The notes beneath the pieces were generated by a model. It searched no databases. It was not told where the DNA came from and saw only the letters and a program-made list of their open reading frames with translations. A stretch of DNA of 64,000 nt from Paraflavitalea soli (GTDB taxonomy: Bacteria > Bacteroidota > Bacteroidia > Chitinophagales > Chitinophagaceae): assembly GCF_003555545.1 (NCBI RefSeq), contig NZ_CP032157.1, positions 7,258,546 to 7,322,545 of the forward strand. The letters are read 5' to 3'. Within the stretch, counting starts at the first letter, position 1. Every line of letters starts with the position of its first letter. Positions 7,607 to 53,143 of this stretch are shown here, piece by piece. The position numbers were made by a program, and so were the translations under genes.

Positions 7607-7677
7607 GGCCTGGGGTTTATATCTCACTAGTGCTTGCCCCGCAACACCTGCGACAGCAGGAAGCAACCCTTTCTCGT

Positions 7678-7709
7678 TGCCTTACTGCCTCGATGCCTTG
7701 TTGCCTTAT
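7678..7709. repeat. 8 bp degenerate tandem array TGCCTnnn
   Basis: Units TGCCTTAC, TGCCTCGA, TGCCTTGT, TGCCTTAT in exact register. The same unit recurs at 20386-20409 and 20457-20488. It lies in the 326 bp gap before the citrate synthase gene. Confidence 0.75.
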
Positions 7710-7839
7710 ACTGTTGGAATGCTGAAATAATCAAGGGATTAGTAAGAGATTAGAATAAAATAAATTATTGTTTAGTTTTATTAAAAGCCTATTAATTTAA
7801 AAGGTTTCTTACTATTTCCGTCAACCCCATTGAATTAAT

Positions 7840-10037: not shown

Positions 10038-10086
10038 AGTCTGGGAGTCAGTAAGTCCGGAAGTTGGTAAAGTCCGAAAGTCGGTC
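10038..10086. repeat. 8 bp degenerate tandem array AGTCnGnn
   Basis: Six units: AGTCTGGG, AGTCAGTA, AGTCCGGA, AGTTGGTA (plus one A), AGTCCGAA, AGTCGGTC. It lies between the TPR regulator and the LytTR operon. Confidence 0.65.
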
Positions 10087-10125
10087 GCGGCGCTGTTTTC
10101 TTCCGGTCTTTCCGCCTTTCTGACT

Positions 10126-11850
10126 TTATATCAGGTTAACCAATTCATCAAGAGAACCTTCTTCAGGAAGATTAACCTTCTTGCGCAATCGCTGCCGCGC
10201 CTTTTTGATGGCATCATAACTTACGCCCAGCATAGCCGCCATATCCTTGGGCGGTAATTGTAATTTGGTGAGGGCGATTAAGCGGGTGTCCGCAGCACTG
10301 AGGTCGGGCATTTTTTCGCGAAGGCGTATAAAGAACCCCGGGTATACTTTCTCATAAAGATCGCGGAAAGTTCTCCAGTCTTCCTCTGTCAGGATGGTGG
10401 CATTGAGCAGTTGGTGAAGGTTTTCCATCCGCTCTTTGTTTTCCTGCAGGCCATGCTGTTGTAGTTGCTCCAGTTCCTGCCTGAACTGTTCGATCAGCTC
10501 ATTCTTTTCTTTGAGCTTATTCGTATAACCTGTCAATTCCTGTTGGGCAAAGGCCAGTTGCTGCCGGTCTTTCTCGCGGGCCATGGCCGACAATTGTAAT
10601 TCCTTGTTGCGCTTCAATCGTTGCCGGTTTACCCACAGCAGCCCAATAATGCAGGTCAGCAGCAGCACGATCAATAAGCTGTTCCTGATAAATACTTCCT
10701 GCCGGCGCTGGTATTCCAGTTCATTGATCGCCTTGAGGTGTTGCTCCGTTTCCACTTTCAGCTTGGCCTGGTTGAGTGTTCGGTTGCCACGTATCACCGC
10801 CAGACTGTCTTTGTACAACAACAGCGAATCGGCATATTGCAATGCCAGCGCATCATTCCCTTTGTATTGGTGGTACCGGTACAGGTTTTCATACCAGTTC
10901 TTGTATAGTACAGCGCCTCCCCATTGGTATACATAGGGGCGGGCCAGGTCGAGGTACCTTTGGGCTTCACTGACTTTCCCCTGCCGGAGATAAATGGTAA
11001 CCAGCACCATGGCAGCATTGATAGCGCTGCCCCATTCCCTTGCTTTCATGCTGCCTTCATAATCTTCGAGCAGTAAGGGCAGGGCCAGCATATCTTTCCC
11101 CTGGAGGTGATAGGTATACCCGAGGTTGCCATAGGAGAGCGACATGTAAAACGAATCTTTCACCGCAGCAGCGGAAGCGTGCGACCTGTTGAAATAATAG
11201 ATCGCCGAATCATATTGTTTCAACTGCTGATAACACAAGGCAATGCTGTTCTCTACTGCGGTAAAATAGAAAACATTATTCCAGTAAGCTGGCACGGCCA
11301 GAGCTTCTTTATAATGCTTGATGGCCTGTTCATATTCTCCAAAGCGGTAATAGCATTCAGCCAGTCCACCGGCATAGCGCCTGGTATAGGGGTAATTGTT
11401 GATCCCTTTTGCTTCAAACAGGTGACGGGCCTTTTGCATGTATTCAAAGGCCGGACCAAACTTTTCCAATACAAAATAGTAATCCCCGGTATAGTACCAG
11501 CATTCTGCCGCTACCATGGGCCACCCTTTTTGCCGGGCCGTTTCTTCTGCCCGCAGCATGATGTCAACACTTGTAGGCAGGCCGCGGTATTGCGTGGACA
11601 GGTAGACCTGTTGTATGAGCCATGCCTGTTGCATGGGCAATTCCAGGTCTTTGTTGCGATAATATTGCTCGGCAGCCTGCAATTGATTAACGACGGAGGC
11701 GCTATCCTGCGTGAGTAAGCTCTTTTTGTACCAGGCCCATATGGTTTTCACCTGTTCGTCTTTGGAGAGCGAAGATGAAATGGCTGGCTGGGCATGGGCC
11801 ACAGATAAGGAGCATACAAACAGCCATAACAGCAGCGACTTTCGAGCCAA
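10126..11850 (-). CDS. Membrane-bound TPR regulator with C-terminal helix-turn-helix
   Basis: 574 residues. A signal peptide (1-20, ending AHAQ) is followed by five to six tetratricopeptide repeats in the periplasm (about 85-340), one transmembrane helix (FIRNSLLIVLLLTCIIGLLW, about 390-410), a cytoplasmic coiled coil (about 415-480) and a C-terminal LuxR-like helix-turn-helix (LPPKDMAAMLGVSYDAIKKARQRLRKK, about 532-558). This layout is a Bacteroidota one-component regulator that senses outside the membrane and binds DNA inside. The start is TTG at 11850: an in-frame TAA lies two codons upstream and the signal peptide begins here. Its neighbours on the same strand, 150 bp on, are the small membrane protein and LytTR genes, possible targets. 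Confidence 0.85.
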   Translation of the reverse strand: MARKSLLLWLFVCSLSVAHAQPAISSSLSKDEQVKTIWAWYKKSLLTQDSASVVNQLQAAEQYYRNKDLELPMQQAWLIQQVYLSTQYRGLPTSVDIMLRAEETARQKGWPMVAAECWYYTGDYYFVLEKFGPAFEYMQKARHLFEAKGINNYPYTRRYAGGLAECYYRFGEYEQAIKHYKEALAVPAYWNNVFYFTAVENSIALCYQQLKQYDSAIYYFNRSHASAAAVKDSFYMSLSYGNLGYTYHLQGKDMLALPLLLEDYEGSMKAREWGSAINAAMVLVTIYLRQGKVSEAQRYLDLARPYVYQWGGAVLYKNWYENLYRYHQYKGNDALALQYADSLLLYKDSLAVIRGNRTLNQAKLKVETEQHLKAINELEYQRRQEVFIRNSLLIVLLLTCIIGLLWVNRQRLKRNKELQLSAMAREKDRQQLAFAQQELTGYTNKLKEKNELIEQFRQELEQLQQHGLQENKERMENLHQLLNATILTEEDWRTFRDLYEKVYPGFFIRLREKMPDLSAADTRLIALTKLQLPPKDMAAMLGVSYDAIKKARQRLRKKVNLPEEGSLDELVNLI

Positions 11851-37568: not shown

Positions 37569-37642
37569 TGGAGGATATCGGGGTCGAACCGATGACCTCT
37601 AACATGCCATGCTAGCGCTCTAGCCAACTGAGCTAATCCCCC
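37569..37642 (-). tRNA. tRNA-Ala (anticodon GGC)
   Basis: 74 nt cloverleaf: acceptor GGGGGAT/ATCCTCC (one G-U), D arm GCTC/GAGC, anticodon stem CTAGC/GTTAG around loop ATGGCAT, TPsiC loop TTCGACC closed by ATCGG/CCGAT, discriminator A. The anticodon GGC reads alanine GCC/GCU codons. CCA is not encoded. It has its own promoter and terminator. Confidence 0.96.
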
Positions 37643-37717: not shown

Positions 37718-37889
37718 TAAAAATAGCGGAGTTTCAACCCGAAAACCCGCTTTTTACCTTAAATTACATACAACCACAAAAAGTGCTATGATTTATAGTA
37801 AGCAGTTGGTTATCAAATCCTCACATGTTTTGGGCAGCTCAACTCCTTCCTTTGCCCAAAACAGCCGCCGCCAGGCCAGGTAATGACCC

Positions 37890-37944
37890 TTATCGAGACC
37901 TTTCCGAGACCTTATCGGGACCTTATCGAGACTTTGTCGAGACC
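37890..37944. repeat. 11 bp tandem array TTATCGAGACC
   Basis: Five units: TTATCGAGACC, TTTCCGAGACC, TTATCGGGACC, TTATCGAGAC, TTTGTCGAGACC (11, 11, 11, 10, 12 bp). It lies 180 bp upstream of the ECF sigma start. No start codon and frame fit it as coding sequence. Confidence 0.8.
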
Positions 37945-37960
37945 CTCCTCCCAGTCAGCC

Positions 37961-38004
37961 CCGTACATCCTCCGTGTACCATCCGTGTCAAGTCCCTGTC
38001 CAGG
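37961..38004. repeat. 11 bp degenerate tandem array CCGTGTnnnnT
   Basis: CCGTACATCCT, CCGTGTACCAT, CCGTGTCAAGT, CCCTGTCCAGG in exact 11 bp register. It follows the neighbouring array after 16 bp, with a different unit. Confidence 0.65.
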
Positions 38005-38122
38005 CCCTCTTTTGCTTATTCAACAGGTTGTGCAGGGCTACAGACCGGGAATTTGGCATTCATCGAAAATCTTTCCTAATTTCAGCTTCCTTTTATCGAT
38101 CCTATTTCAACGATTGCAACGC

Positions 38123-38704: not shown

Positions 38705-38732
38705 TAGCGAAACCCTGTCGAAGCAAGCGCAT

Positions 38733-38760
38733 TGCCGACTGCCGATTGCCGACTGCCGAA
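38733..38760. repeat. 7 bp tandem array TGCCGAY, second locus
   Basis: TGCCGAC, TGCCGAT, TGCCGAC, TGCCGAA in exact register. With the preceding TCGAAGCAAGCG it resembles 31535-31576, so a longer unit appears dispersed. Confidence 0.7.
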
Positions 38761-38829
38761 ATTTATTTTCCCCCTCAATAGTACTACCCCCTTCCGGCTG
38801 TCGTCTTATATGGTTAACAACGATGCCAT

Positions 38830-48238: not shown

Positions 48239-50158
48239 TTACCGCTTCCACCTAAGCTGTACCCCGCCCATGAACCAACTGCCCGGCATGGGCGTGCCCA
48301 ATAGGTCGCTGTACTGCCGGTCAAACATGTTGTCTACCTGCGCATAGACCGCCAGCATGTTGTGGAAGAAACCATATTGCACTTTTGCATTCATAAGGAA
48401 ATAATCCCGCGAAAGCGCCGCATTGATGGCGGCTGCCTGTTGTTCCTGCCGTTGTTTGTACAGCCCCGTCACACTCACCAGCAGGTCGCCGTATTCGTAG
48501 ATCAGCGAGAAGTTGGTGAGGAACTTAGCATGCGAAGAGATATAAAAAGAAGGCGTGCTATCACTGCTGCTGCTCGACAGCCATACAAGTCCTGCTCCGG
48601 CCGTCAGTTTGTGCCCCTGGCCAAAGTCGTGAATATACTGTGCATCTGTTTCAAAACCCGTGGTATTTACCTCCGCAACGTTTTTGGCGAGGGCATAGGT
48701 GCCGGTGGGAGACAGGTTGGTTTTGCGTGGCATATCCGCATAGGCCGTCGTGCTATAATCGATCAGCCGCTGGTGAAAACGCTGGAAGAAGGTGGCCGAT
48801 ACTTTTAGTTTTTCTTTCCGGAACCAGTCGCCCCCTACTTCATAACTCAGCGATCGCTCAGCCCGCAGGTCAGGATTGCCTACCCGGCCACTCGTTACCA
48901 ACGCTTTGTTGTAATTGTTGTAGCGCTCCGTGAAATCCGCATCCCGGATCGTTTTGCCCACACTGCCCCGCAATTGCCAGTCGCCCGCCTGCTGCGAGAG
49001 GTCAAGCTGTGGCACCAACTCGGCAGTAATGTTCTCAAAGTATACCCACTGCAGCGAAGGCCGCATCGTAAATCCTTCCCAAAGCTTTTGCGTTAAAGAA
49101 ACGAAAGGTGATACCTGGTAAAGGTTATGATGGCCACGATCGTTGGACGCGATCTTCTTTTCCAGGAAATTAACACCACCCGCCAGGTTGCTGTGTTTGC
49201 TGAAACGGTATCCATACAACAATCTCCACTGGAACAACTTGGATACACTGCTGTTGGCTGCCGATAATTTGTTGAAAGCATATCCGTCCGTTACCGATTT
49301 GAAAGCCCCATCCACCGAAAAGCTGGCCCTGTTCTTTTCATAACCAATATGCACCTGGTGCCAGCGTGAGGTTACTTTTTCACCCGCCGTATCCGACAGG
49401 AAAGTGGTATAATAATTCTGCGCCGCAAAGTCCCGCGTATCATAGGCAAACCGGTAAGCGATACGCCATGATGGGCTGAGCCAGTAGTTGGCCGATACAG
49501 AAGCTGTGGTATTGTTGAAATAACCCGTAGTGCCCCGTTGTTGCACCCCATCCGCCTGGTTCCTGAGCACGCCACCTGCCAGGTGCAGCCTGTTGTTGCT
49601 GTACACCACCCCGGCATCTGCGCCCCACAAGCCATATTGCCCCGCCTTGGCGCCGGCTGTTACCTTCGTGCTCTTTTGCCCCATCCGCGCTGCAAAGGTT
49701 TTGGTGACAATATAGACCACTCCGCCCACCGCATCCGCTCCATAGATCGCCGAAGAAGCCCCTTTCAATACTTCAATGCGTTCGATCTCTGCAGGAGCGA
49801 TGGGTATATAACTATTGAAGTGCCCCGTATTGGGATCGTTGAGCCGCATGCCATCGAGGATCACGAGCACCTGTTGGAAGGTGCCGCCACGCAACACAAT
49901 GTCACTTTGTGAGCCCATGGGGCCGCGGGCCTGTATCTCTACGCCGGGTACATACCGCAGCAGGTCGTCGAGCGAATGTACCGGCAGCTTATTAAATCGA
50001 TCGCCGGGGATGATCGTGATGTTGCGGCCCGTTTCCGAAGCGCGTTGCTGACTTAAGGAAGCCGACACGGTTACGGGGTTGAGCGTGCTATCCTGGGCCT
50101 GTGCCATCAGGCCACCCAGGCTCCAGCTTATGATTAACAGGAGGGTCTTTTTTTGCAT
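48239..50158 (-). CDS. TonB-dependent receptor, BtuB-like
   Basis: 639 residues from the ATG at 50158; the frame extends to 50227, but those residues are not signal-like and a -7 box lies at 50172-50165. A signal peptide (MQKKTLLLIISWSLGGLMAQAQ) precedes the TonB box region LNPVTVSAS, the plug (about 45-150: LDDLLRYVPGVEIQARGPMGSQSDIVLRGG, VLVILDGMRLNDPNTGHFNSYIP, IERIEVLKGASSAIYGADAVGGVVYIVTK) and a 22-strand barrel ending in WKR. The plug closely follows the vitamin B12 receptor BtuB, but no cobalamin riboswitch or B12 genes are nearby, so the ligand is open. It is divergent from the outer-membrane gene at 50732. Confidence 0.9.
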   Translation of the reverse strand: MQKKTLLLIISWSLGGLMAQAQDSTLNPVTVSASLSQQRASETGRNITIIPGDRFNKLPVHSLDDLLRYVPGVEIQARGPMGSQSDIVLRGGTFQQVLVILDGMRLNDPNTGHFNSYIPIAPAEIERIEVLKGASSAIYGADAVGGVVYIVTKTFAARMGQKSTKVTAGAKAGQYGLWGADAGVVYSNNRLHLAGGVLRNQADGVQQRGTTGYFNNTTASVSANYWLSPSWRIAYRFAYDTRDFAAQNYYTTFLSDTAGEKVTSRWHQVHIGYEKNRASFSVDGAFKSVTDGYAFNKLSAANSSVSKLFQWRLLYGYRFSKHSNLAGGVNFLEKKIASNDRGHHNLYQVSPFVSLTQKLWEGFTMRPSLQWVYFENITAELVPQLDLSQQAGDWQLRGSVGKTIRDADFTERYNNYNKALVTSGRVGNPDLRAERSLSYEVGGDWFRKEKLKVSATFFQRFHQRLIDYSTTAYADMPRKTNLSPTGTYALAKNVAEVNTTGFETDAQYIHDFGQGHKLTAGAGLVWLSSSSSDSTPSFYISSHAKFLTNFSLIYEYGDLLVSVTGLYKQRQEQQAAAINAALSRDYFLMNAKVQYGFFHNMLAVYAQVDNMFDRQYSDLLGTPMPGSWFMGGVQLRWKR

Positions 50159-50164
50159 AACGCG

Positions 50165-50201
50165 CAAAAGTAGGAACTTTAAACCAGCTACATATGCTGG
50201 T
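50165..50201 (-). promoter_or_regulatory. -7 box and inverted repeat of the BtuB-like gene
   Basis: TACTTTTG (50172-50165) is an exact TAnnTTTG, seven bases before the start codon, implying an almost leaderless mRNA. ACCAGC...GCTGGT (50183-50201) is an inverted repeat between the -7 and the expected -33, a likely operator. No TTTG is found 20 bp upstream. Confidence 0.45.
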
Positions 50202-50289
50202 ATTGCCGGAGGCAATTTGCCTTTCACGCGCTTCAGCGCCTAAGCTATATATCCGCCGGAAGATGGAGTGTGTTGGACTACTGATTCAC

Positions 50290-50465
50290 TGATGTTTCCC
50301 TGATCATTCCCTGGTGTTTCCCTGGTCATTCCCTGATCAATCCCTGATCAAGTCGTGGTCAACCTGTGGTCAACTCCTGCCTTATTCCTGCCTAAGCCCC
50401 GGGTAAGTCCTGCCCAAACGGTGATCAACGCCGCATCAGGACCTGATCAGGCCCTGGTCCCTTCC
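50290..50465. repeat. 11 bp degenerate tandem array, 16 units in exact register
   Basis: The 176 bp divide without any insertion or deletion into sixteen 11-mers, beginning TGATGTTTCCC, TGATCATTCCC, TGGTGTTTCCC, TGGTCATTCCC, TGATCAATCCC and ending TGATCAACGCC, GCATCAGGACC, TGATCAGGCCC, TGGTCCCTTCC. The rough consensus is TGRTCAnnYCC. It lies between the divergent BtuB-like and outer-membrane barrel genes (starts 50158 and 50732). It is not coding: no matching start codon and no frame with a plausible protein. Confidence 0.85.
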
Positions 50466-50731
50466 AATTATCCCCGTATGCCAACTGTTATATACCCTGT
50501 TTTTGCCCGCTTCATAACGTCGCCAAACAGCCGGTAAGTCAAATTATACCGGACACGACCGGACATTTTGGACACCTTACGCCACTATGCGACAGCGCCA
50601 CTTGGAAACCACCTTTCCGCCATTGTATCATTGTATCGATGGCCAGGCATGACAGCAAATTCTCATACTGGCCTTGCACTTTAGATTTTCTTTCAAATTG
50701 GAATTTAATATGCACCCATAATTGACCATCC

Positions 50732-53143
50732 ATGCAGCAAAAGTTTTTTCTATATATTTCTTTACTATTGATCACCACCTTGGTACAGGCGCAATCCGTT
50801 AAAGTAACCTTGTCCGGATCAGTGAAAGATGCAAACAGTAAAGCCGCTTTGGCTTTTGTCAATATCACCCTCAAAGCAGCGAAGGACAGCGCTTTTGTGG
50901 CAGGTACCATTTCCCGTGAGGACGGCCGGTTTCAGTTGCCCGATATCGCCAGCGGCAATTACCAGTTGCTTATTTCTTATGTAGGGTATACCTCCAAAGC
51001 GCAGCCCGTATTGATCGGGCAGTTAACCAACTTCCTCGACCTGGGTGTCATAGAGCTGAAACCAGAAGCCAGATCAATGGATGAAGTGACCGTAACCGCT
51101 GCCCAGAACGCCGTCTCCGCCAAAATGGATAAAAAGACCTTCAACCTGGCCGACAACATCAGTCAGTCAGGCGGCTCAGCCCTGGAAGCCATGAAAAACC
51201 TGCCCGGCATCACCACCAGTCAGGATGGCAAAGTACAATTGCGGGGCAGCGACAAAGTGATGATCTTAATAGATGGTAAGCAGACCGCCTTGACCGGCTT
51301 TGGCGGCCAGACGGGTCTCGACAATATACCTGCTTCGGCCATTGAAAAAATAGAGATCATCAACAACCCTTCTTCGAAATATGATGCGAATGGTAATGCA
51401 GGCATCATCAATATCATTTACAAAAAAGAAAAGAAAGAAGGTTTCAATGGCAAAGTGGGTCTTACCGGGGGATTAGGAGCACTCTGGATCAAAAAAGAAA
51501 ACTACCCCACCATTCGCCCCCAATACCAGGCAACCCCCAAGATCAACCCTTCCCTCTCCCTCAACTACCGGAAAAATAAAGTGAACCTCTTCTTCCAGGG
51601 AGATGACCTGTACACAAAGACCCTGAACAAAAATGAGTTCGTGGACAGGTTCTATGACGATGGCTCAGTAGTGAAGCAACAAACAAAAAGAAACAGGACC
51701 ACCAATTTCCTGACCCTGAGAACAGGCGTGGATTGGTTTGTAAACAGCAACAATACCATCACCGTTGCCGGCCTGTACGGCACCGAAAAGATACTGGACC
51801 GGGGCGATGAACCTTTCTTCAATAAGGACCTGGTAAAAAGAGAACGCCTCTGGCAGTTCCTGGAAGATGAATTGAAAACAACCGCCACCGCCACGGCAAG
51901 CTGGCAGCACAAATTCAAACAGCCCGGCAGGCTCCTCAATGTAGGGCTCAACTATACCTTCCACCGGGAGGATGAAAAATACAATTTCACCAATATCCAG
52001 CCCAATTATACCGGCCTCGATTCTTTCAAGCTACTGTCGGATGAGCATGTGGCCGACGTTAATGTGGATTATGTGCAACCGCTCAAGCATGGCCGTTTTG
52101 AAACCGGCCTCAAGTTCAGGAGAAGGTGGATACCCGTCAATATGCAGTTTAAGCCGGGTGTGCACTCCGCTATAGATTCTACTGCAGGCGGTCAGGCCGA
52201 TTATGCCGAAACCATACCGGCTGTCTATGGCAACTATATCTATGAAAGCAGCCGCTTTGAAATAGAAGCTGGTCTACGCGTAGAATATGTGCACCTCAAC
52301 TATGAGGTAAACCCCAACCACCCCGTCTACAAAAGCGACGGATACAATTATATGCAGCCCTTCCCCAACCTGCGCCTGGCCTACAAGATCGATGATAACA
52401 ATAAGCTGTCCCTGTTCTTCAACCGCCGGGTAGACAGGCCCAATGAAGTGGATATCCGCATCTTTCCCAAGTACGATGATGCCGAGATCATTAAAGTGGG
52501 CAACCCCGCCCTTCGTCCACAGTTTACCAACACCGTGGAGCTGGGTTACAAAACCAATTGGCACAATGGTTACCTGTTCTCATCCGTTTACCACAAACGG
52601 ATGGAAGCTACCATCATCCGTATTGGTAGTATTGTACCAGGCAGTACCATCATCTATAATATTTTCCAGAATGCAGGCAAGAGCTATAATACAGGTGTAG
52701 AACTGATGCTTTCCCAAAATGCTGCCAAATGGGCCACTTTCAGCCTCAACCTGAATGGCTATGAGAATGTGATCGATGCCTTTACTGTAGTGAATAAATA
52801 CCCCGTAGAGAATATGTATACAGCAGGCAGGGAAAACATTTTTTCCGGCAACGCTAAGTTCAACGCCTTGTTCCACCTGCCCAATAAAGTAGAAGCCCAG
52901 TTGGCCGTCGTATACCAGGCGCCCGACCTCGTGCCCCAGGGTAAGACCTTCTCCCGCTTTTCTATGGATGCGGGCGTTAAGAAAGCCATCCAACAGGGCC
53001 GGGGAGAAGTGTTTGTCAACGCGACCGATATCGCCAATACCTTACGGGTAAAGCGGGAGGTCAGGGGCAATGGCTTCCGGTATGTAAGCACCGATTATTA
53101 TGAAACCCAGGTGATCCGGCTGGGCTACAGCTATAAGTTCTAG
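50732..53143 (+). CDS. Outer-membrane beta-barrel protein with carboxypeptidase-like domain
   Basis: 803 residues. A signal peptide (1-20, ending VQAQ) is followed by a CarboxypepD_reg-like beta domain (about 24-110: LSGSVKDANSKAALAFVNITL, DGRFQLPDIASGNYQLLISYVGY), a TonB-plug-like domain (about 115-225: GSALEAMKNLPGITTSQDGKVQLRGSDKVMILIDGKQTAL, IEKIEIINNPSSKYDANGNAGIINI) and an OMP_b-brl_3 barrel ending LGYSYKF, with a terminal aromatic as expected. It is the TonB-receptor-like family common in Bacteroidota, usually without a SusD partner; ligand unknown. It is divergent from the BtuB-like receptor, with the 11 bp array between. Confidence 0.9.
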   Translation: MQQKFFLYISLLLITTLVQAQSVKVTLSGSVKDANSKAALAFVNITLKAAKDSAFVAGTISREDGRFQLPDIASGNYQLLISYVGYTSKAQPVLIGQLTNFLDLGVIELKPEARSMDEVTVTAAQNAVSAKMDKKTFNLADNISQSGGSALEAMKNLPGITTSQDGKVQLRGSDKVMILIDGKQTALTGFGGQTGLDNIPASAIEKIEIINNPSSKYDANGNAGIINIIYKKEKKEGFNGKVGLTGGLGALWIKKENYPTIRPQYQATPKINPSLSLNYRKNKVNLFFQGDDLYTKTLNKNEFVDRFYDDGSVVKQQTKRNRTTNFLTLRTGVDWFVNSNNTITVAGLYGTEKILDRGDEPFFNKDLVKRERLWQFLEDELKTTATATASWQHKFKQPGRLLNVGLNYTFHREDEKYNFTNIQPNYTGLDSFKLLSDEHVADVNVDYVQPLKHGRFETGLKFRRRWIPVNMQFKPGVHSAIDSTAGGQADYAETIPAVYGNYIYESSRFEIEAGLRVEYVHLNYEVNPNHPVYKSDGYNYMQPFPNLRLAYKIDDNNKLSLFFNRRVDRPNEVDIRIFPKYDDAEIIKVGNPALRPQFTNTVELGYKTNWHNGYLFSSVYHKRMEATIIRIGSIVPGSTIIYNIFQNAGKSYNTGVELMLSQNAAKWATFSLNLNGYENVIDAFTVVNKYPVENMYTAGRENIFSGNAKFNALFHLPNKVEAQLAVVYQAPDLVPQGKTFSRFSMDAGVKKAIQQGRGEVFVNATDIANTLRVKREVRGNGFRYVSTDYYETQVIRLGYSYKF

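What the first reader, a model, noticed from the sequence alone, without database searches (positions are those of the whole stretch)
50290..50465. Sixteen degenerate 11 bp units in perfect register between two divergent outer-membrane genes
The 176 bp split into sixteen 11-mers with no indel, rough consensus TGRTCAnnYCC. Unit sequences drift from one end to the other while the period does not. An 11 bp step is close to one DNA turn, so every unit faces the same side. Two explanations are possible: an extended binding array for one protein controlling both the BtuB-like and the barrel gene, or a minisatellite kept by slippage and drift. I know of no described element of this form.
Basis: partly seen in the sequence, partly recalled or inferred. 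Interest (0 to 1): 0.7.

Follow-up and report, generated by a model that had tools for sequence, protein, structure and literature searches.

The report
Dispersed 11-bp phased repeat arrays
A bacterium carries, scattered between its genes, short DNA blocks built of units exactly 11 letters long (about one turn of the helix); the units differ from block family to block family while the 11-letter step does not, and copies of one insertion sequence sit beside such blocks.

Summary
In detail: 50290-50465 is a strict 11-bp array (lag-11 identity 0.648; shuffles 0.260 +/- 0.035, maximum 0.382 of 2000). It is not private to these two genes: arrays of the same family lie at two other loci of this genome and in a sister species, and btuB upstream regions of the four nearest relatives show none. 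A sample of 2.46 Mb (29% of the genome) holds 28 noncoding period-11 arrays plus the window's second array at 37886; at that setting periods 9, 10, 12 and 13 give none. They form about a dozen sequence families, most with about five units. In the best-sampled family the 15 copies held, from five genomes, each have exactly five units with abrupt ends. Host gaps show no gene-orientation bias in 28 arrays. All eight copies of one IS3-like element have an 11-bp-periodic right flank. Best reading: dispersed intergenic elements whose period is under constraint, most likely as one-protomer-per-turn protein platforms. Dispersal and register are shown; the protein is inferred. Searches of an open-access library listed no report of such a class.

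The parts
50286..50465 (+). Family A array: about 16 units of 11 bp, consensus TGRTCAnnYCC
   Evidence: same family at G000:C1:8086594-8086739 (75%), at 1695252-1695325 and 1693760-1693783 (either side of an IS), and at places in G003
37886..37945 (+). Family B array: five units of 11 bp (TTATCGAGACC) with leading ACCC and closing C
37946..38010 (+). Weaker second 11-bp-periodic stretch following family B (CCGTGTACCAT CCGTGTCAAGT ...)
   Evidence: lag-11 identity 0.70 over 33 bp, 22 bp past the core
48239..50158 (-). Flanking gene: BtuB-like TonB-dependent receptor (context only)
50732..53143 (+). Flanking gene: outer-membrane beta-barrel receptor, PF14905 (context only)

Best explanation
The array is one member of a set of dispersed intergenic repeat elements whose common feature is an exact 11-bp step. 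Several families have clearly been copied to new places as whole blocks. SHOWN: dispersal, several sequence families, strict register, fixed unit number in the copies held of the best-sampled family, no gene-orientation preference in a small sample, an IS sitting next to arrays of different sequence. INFERRED: the register is kept because a protein binds head to tail, one protomer per helical turn on one face, so that an indel breaks the site while base changes are tolerated. What the bound platform does (nucleoid anchoring, local silencing, or the element's own spread) is open; specific control of the two outer-membrane genes here is the least likely use.
For: Noncoding arrays by period (44-bp setting, 2.46 Mb): 11: 28, 7: 45, 8: 10; 9, 10, 12, 13: none; 18: 6 and 20: 5. 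None at lags 5-30 in five shuffled passes. Copies align as blocks: families B, C, D, E, F, G, I, J over 52-286 bp, gaps lying outside the arrays. Family A copies in CAU 1676 share unit order (0.881 and 0.780 identity; 0 of 300 unit permutations reach either), the window and 8086594 marginally (0.676; 6 of 300 reach it). Family B: 15 copies from G000-G004 have five units at 8-11 of 11 matches and neighbouring 11-mers at 0-5; one is at the tRNA-sigma gap of G002, syntenic on both sides, and one beside the same tRNA in G004, with heavily gapped flanks. Shared deviations within copies: 43 against 14.5 expected, at most 30 in 2000 permutations. Lag-11 excess, and no other lag of 9-13, runs about 60 bp past 24 cores. 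Host gaps ++9, -+7, +-6, --6 of 28 against 8.4, 8.2, 4.8, 6.6 from gap lengths. Proteins that bind 11-bp-spaced direct repeats: StbA (two sets of five 9-bp repeats spaced by 2 nt, PMC3098194, passages) and CarH (three or four tandem 11-bp repeats, one face, PMC9304148, passages).
Against: No motif is shared by 15 family representatives (2.84 bits against 3.09 +/- 0.11 in column-permuted controls), so one sequence-specific protein does not explain them. No binder gene was identified. Unit order of family A is not detectable between species (44 and 74 of 300 permutations reach the observed value). The within-array covariation rests on a few copies: without L258, L261 and L221 it is 9 against 5.0 (p 0.057), without two more it is gone. 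The 15 family B copies were collected with an ungapped five-unit consensus, which would miss copies with indels; 11 of them had first been fetched by gapped search, whose further hits I did not read. 214 kb of CAU 1676 held no array, although searches find families A and B there. G001 lacks the array at the tRNA-sigma gap.
Confidence: 0.48

Rival explanations
1. Selfish non-autonomous mobile element (MITE- or REPIN-like) in which the 11-bp units are transposase or HUH-endonuclease recognition iterons; no host function.
For: Block dispersal into unrelated intergenic places; no gene-orientation bias; 8 of 28 arrays have an inverted unit 13-38 bp away at p<=0.05, about 2.8 expected from 56 flanks; two Y1_Tnp matches in the genome; BrickBuilt of P. 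gingivalis is a MITE with 23-bp tandem units (PMC4596501, abstract and first part of one section).
Against: No terminal inverted repeats or target duplications seen in the alignments; family B is kept at the tRNA-sigma site in G002 and beside the same tRNA in G004; the Y1_Tnp surroundings could not be read.
Confidence: 0.27
2. Ordinary minisatellite made by replication slippage, with drift.
For: Units are more alike within an array than between families; the gapped alignment of the window with 8086594 has one 11-bp gap; unit order of family A is not detectable between species; period-7 arrays in the same genome look like this.
Against: Unit number of period-11 arrays peaks at five (15 of 29) while period-7 arrays fall off from four (diverged arrays of under four units are partly missed); family B has five units in the 15 copies held; families share block order within a genome.
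Confidence: 0.14
3. Extended operator for one regulator of the btuB-like and the barrel gene.
For: Position between divergent genes; CarH-type operators are tandem 11-bp repeats.
Against: Same family elsewhere in other contexts; no array upstream of btuB in L039-L042; no orientation bias.
Confidence: 0.05
4. Rho-utilisation arrays (C residues every 11-13 nt, recalled; the prediction paper PMC6407284 was seen only in a search listing).
For: Family B has a CC at nearly each 11-nt step and some copies start soon after a stop codon (read by eye); every array has one strand with more C than G.
Against: The excess is small in many (A 1.43 and 1.13, D 1.10-1.25, K 1.06); convergent gaps are 6 of 28 against 4.8 expected, tandem gaps 15 against 15.0. 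Strand relative to gene 3' ends was not tallied.
Confidence: 0.04

Closest known systems
BrickBuilt and MITE464/PgRS of Porphyromonas gingivalis (PMC4596501, abstract and first part of one section)
   Same: Bacteroidota; dispersed element with internal gapless tandem units, BrickBuilt always intergenic
   Different: 23- or 41-bp units, one unit sequence per element type, leader and tail with terminal inverted repeats; here 11 bp, many sequence families, no terminal repeats found
stbDRs of plasmid R388, bound by StbA (PMC3098194, passages); parC of plasmid R1 bound by ParR (recalled)
   Same: Direct repeats with an 11-bp step in sets of five
   Different: A plasmid locus beside its own gene and one motif; here chromosomal, dispersed, many motifs, no partner gene identified
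CarH operators (PMC9304148, passages)
   Same: Tandem 11-bp direct repeats read on one face of DNA, degenerate units tolerated
   Different: Three or four repeats at carotenoid promoters with nnnnTnnACAn; not the consensus of families A or B
REP sequences and the ISs that target them (PMC1525189, abstract)
   Same: Extragenic dispersed repeats that serve as landing places for particular ISs
   Different: REPs are palindromic; these are direct repeats, only a minority with an inverted partner
Heptamer arrays of cyanobacteria (recalled)
   Same: Constant unit length with differing unit sequence
   Different: 7 bp, not 11

Membership tests
MITE / BrickBuilt-like | Several copies, intergenic, short, non-coding | tested here: met
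MITE / BrickBuilt-like | Terminal inverted repeats shared with an IS, target duplication | tested here: inconclusive
   None seen in the pairwise alignments or family B flanks, by eye; no near-identical strains were available
Slipping minisatellite | Unit number varies between copies and strains | tested here: inconclusive
   Family B: five units in the 15 copies held, which argues against; family A: one 11-bp gap between two copies; strains not available
StbA/ParR-type centromere | Direct repeats with an 11-bp step in sets of five | tested here: met
   a second adjoining array in some elements
StbA/ParR-type centromere | Plasmid or single locus beside the gene of the binding protein | tested here: not met
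   Many chromosomal loci; window array flanked by receptor genes; no match of the window array in the plasmid collection
CarH operator | TnnACA in the 11-bp units, at carotenoid promoters | tested here: not met
   TnnACA is not present in each unit of families A or B (by eye; some third units of B fit on the minus strand); the two genes beside the window array are receptors
REP/BIME | Palindromic unit | tested here: not met
   Inverted partner at p<=0.05 on at least one flank in 8 of 28 arrays only; family A units do contain TGATCA, itself a palindrome
Rho-dependent terminator | C-rich, G-poor transcript 3' of genes | tested here: inconclusive
   Composition weakly in favour for some, gap types neutral; strand relative to gene ends not tallied
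Known RNA family | Rfam match at gathering score | tested here: not met
   One tRNA is the only match in the window

The most novel reading that the evidence does not exclude
A class of bacterial interspersed elements defined by geometry, not sequence: blocks of about five (or about fifteen) head-to-tail 11-bp units, many sequence families in one genome, with the step and the count kept while the unit sequence changes in concert, read by a protein that measures helical phase and used as landing places by an IS3-like element.
Probability: 0.28. Interest if true: 0.78.

Novelty: new variant of a known kind. Interest (0 to 1): 0.56.

Why it matters
Bacterial repeats are usually classed by sequence. 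Here the property held constant is the helical step and, in the best-sampled family, the count of units in copies from five genomes, while the letters change. That makes a concrete question testable: which chromosomal protein, if any, reads a one-face 11-bp ladder, and does it organise the nucleoid or serve the repeat's own spread. The IS that sits beside arrays of different sequence suggests a transposase that recognises geometry or a bound protein rather than a motif.

Tried and rejected
A shared motif across 15 family representatives was sought by an expectation-maximisation fit and not found above column-permuted controls. A Rho-site reading was weighed by composition and gap type and set low, not excluded. 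Promoter patterns TTG-N16-23-TAnnTT(T/C) were sought in 50101-50800 on both strands: none. Replication-strand polarity was not tested: GC skew of the sampled stretches gave no clean origin and terminus. The plasmid and phage collections gave no match for the window array. Rfam gave only a tRNA. REP-associated transposases: two Y1_Tnp matches, surroundings not readable. A 33-bp subterminal spacing in the IS was guessed and turned out 31-32 bp. The random-site figure (67 of 20000) came from all DNA because a filter did not act; the noncoding figure is that, and its threshold (0.41) was set after seeing the IS flanks. An earlier claim of mine that family A keeps its unit order everywhere was tested and narrowed; for that I lowered the best explanation from 0.50 to 0.48 and the novel case from 0.30 to 0.28, and raised slippage from 0.12 to 0.14.

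Full report
OBSERVATION. The 176 bp at 50290-50465 give sixteen 11-mers without indel; lag-11 identity is 0.648 against 0.260 +/- 0.035 in 2000 dinucleotide shuffles (maximum 0.382), and lags 22 and 33 are 0.578 and 0.559. The best segment is 50286-50459, 15.8 units, 71% identical to its consensus. The window holds a second such array at 37886-37945, between a tRNA (37569-37642, minus) and a sigma-70-family gene (38123, plus).

HOST. The genome is one contig of 8.44 Mb. The btuB-like protein is closest to Paraflavitalea pollutisoli (84%) and Paraflavitalea sp. CAU 1676 (83%). G003, told as same genus, gives the same places as the genome of the CAU 1676 locus, G060, so the window lies in that genus.

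NOT PRIVATE TO THESE GENES. The window array has relatives at G000:C1:8086594-8086739 (75% over 146 bp, ungapped), and at 1695252-1695325 and 1693760-1693783, on either side of an IS. Among 59 genomes, the own one included, 2 had a match, the own one and G003. A G003 copy used as query found three places in that genome and none in G001, G002, G004 or in the genomes of L039, L041, L042 and L104. Upstream of btuB in L039-L042, the four nearest relatives, the DNA is unrelated and no array is seen; L039 has an array of another sequence some 2.4 kb away.

GENOME-WIDE. 121 stretches totalling 2.46 Mb (29% of the genome, window included) were scanned at lags 4-40. At the 44-bp setting period 11 gave 28 noncoding arrays and one flagged coding, which is the window's 37886 array; codon-scored gene calling puts it between genes. 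Periods 9, 10, 12 and 13 gave no noncoding array, period 7 gave 45, period 8 ten, periods 18 and 20 six and five, the rest of the larger counts being multiples of 7, 8 and 11; at the 66-bp setting period 9 gave one. Shuffled noncoding DNA gave none at lags 5-30 in five passes (2.06 Mb sample, 66-bp setting). Averaged over all noncoding DNA of 462 kb the lag-11 value is only slightly raised (0.270; lags 10 and 12 are 0.263 and 0.265; lag 7 is 0.276), so the signal sits in discrete arrays. Elsewhere: P. pollutisoli 4 in 214 kb, CAU 1676 0 in 214 kb, the other loci apart from Dyadobacter (mostly Chitinophagaceae) 2 in 716 kb, Dyadobacter 0 in 312 kb.

FAMILIES. The arrays fall into about a dozen sequence families, many seen more than once: A TGRTCAnnYCC, B TTATCGAGACC, C CTCTATAACTG, D GTCCGTCTTTG, E GTAGGCCATGC, F ACCTTATAGCG, G GTTTACTTTCG, I GACTACCCTAC, J TTCAGCATACC and others. 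Grouping is mine, from the alignments, where pairs match over 52-286 bp. B, C and F resemble one another, but a fit of one motif to 15 representatives does no better than column-permuted controls (2.84 against 3.09 +/- 0.11 bits). What all share is the step. Unit order of family A was tested against unit permutation: it is clear within CAU 1676 (L119-L213 0.881, L119-L120 0.780; 0 of 300 permutations reach either), marginal between the window and 8086594 (0.676; 6 of 300), and not detectable between species (window-L119 44 of 300, L023-L119 74 of 300).

COUNT AND REGISTER. By lag-score segments 15 of 29 period-11 arrays have five units and seven have four, while period-7 arrays decline from four upward. 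Strongly diverged arrays of fewer than four units would be missed, and copies of one family are not independent, so this alone is not decisive. Family B is better: of 26 places that fit a five-unit consensus at 34 or more of 60 letters, the top 15 (47 or more, the next being 40 and of another family) come from G000-G004. Each has five units at 8-11 matches of 11, and the two 11-mers before and three after score 0-5. The scan was ungapped and would miss copies with indels; 11 of the 15 had been fetched by gapped search, and that search listed more hits that I did not read. At the tRNA-sigma gap the array is present in G000 and G002 (syntenic on both sides) and beside the same tRNA in G004; G001 is syntenic without a recognisable array, and the G003 alignment did not reach the gap. 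In G002 all five units carry CCGGA where the window copy has CGAGA in four and CGGGA in one. Shared deviations within copies are 43 against 14.5 expected (at most 30 in 2000 permutations), but this rests on L258, L261 and L221. A gapped alignment of the window with 8086594 has one 11-bp gap; distant family A pairs give gaps of mixed length that I do not interpret.

SURROUNDINGS. Lag-11 identity stays at 0.32-0.37 for about 60 bp beyond 24 array cores and then falls to background, while lags 9, 10, 12 and 13 stay flat; several elements therefore carry a second, weaker array. Inverted units 13-38 bp away are found for 8 of 28 arrays at p<=0.05, about 2.8 expected. Of 28 arrays with both neighbours known, host gaps are ++9, -+7, +-6, --6; gap lengths predict 8.4, 8.2, 4.8, 6.6.

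AN INSERTION SEQUENCE BESIDE THEM. A 1440-bp element with a 124-aa and a 303-aa frame, the second with rve domains (IS3-like by this layout, recalled), has eight full copies at 93-100% identity. In 8 of 8 the 77 bp right of it have lag 11 as the highest of lags 9-13, at 0.41-0.71; on the left this holds in 2 of 8. Random noncoding stretches reach the same in 341 of 20000, with a threshold chosen after seeing the flanks. The eight stand for about four contexts: family J five times, family A, the array at L202, and a weak one at L209 that I would not have called alone. In CAU 1676 a relative of the right end lies about 20-25 bp from a family A array; the flanks of the other matches in G002, G003 and G004 could not be read. 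Other ISs were not examined as controls.

EXPLANATION. Block dispersal, an unbroken step and a constant count point to constraint on geometry. Known 11-bp-spaced direct repeats are protein platforms: stbDRs of R388, two sets of five (PMC3098194, passages), and CarH operators (PMC9304148, passages); R1 parC is recalled. I therefore favour a binding platform (0.48) over a purely selfish element (0.27). Neither the protein nor a mobilising enzyme has been found, and many motifs in one genome speak against one sequence-specific binder.

NOVELTY. Six searches of an open-access library listed no report of 11-bp interspersed arrays in this group; I judged by titles and abstract openings, and subscription papers are not covered. 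A survey seen in passages notes tandem repeats of 6-11 bp over-represented in intergenic DNA of a few other prokaryotes (PMC4060949). I rate it a new variant of a known kind: interspersed elements with internal tandem repeats (BrickBuilt, PMC4596501), with step and perhaps count, not sequence, as the conserved property.

Noticed in passing
window 38714-38761: A period-7 array (TGCCGAC type) with dispersed matches in G000, G002 and G004; period-7 arrays also occur in other Chitinophagaceae and Dyadobacter loci, some with an inverted partner by eye.
   Followed up: partly
L003 51-1491 and L202-L209: IS with an IS3-like two-frame layout, eight full copies, each with an 11-bp-periodic right flank; its right end has TGTAA(A/G)G repeats 31-32 bp apart.
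   Followed up: partly
L023 6573-7126: Family A and family E arrays lie next to each other; an E-like five-unit array also lies near the family A copy in L003.
   Followed up: no
L178 12504-12571, L019 2635-2713: Family J arrays share a conserved head GATGCTATTAGCATAC, with the IS in L019 and without it in L178.
   Followed up: no
window 10038-10147 and 7664-7773: Period-8 repeats: lag-8 identity 0.51 and 0.48 over 110 bp.
   Followed up: no
L217 17041-17106: Some units of this E-like array contain TCTACA, which fits the CarH half-site TnnACA; not examined further.
   Followed up: no
L276 around 1309 (minus): A second 11-bp-periodic stretch (CTAGCCAGACC-like) about 250 bp from a family B copy.
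   Followed up: no
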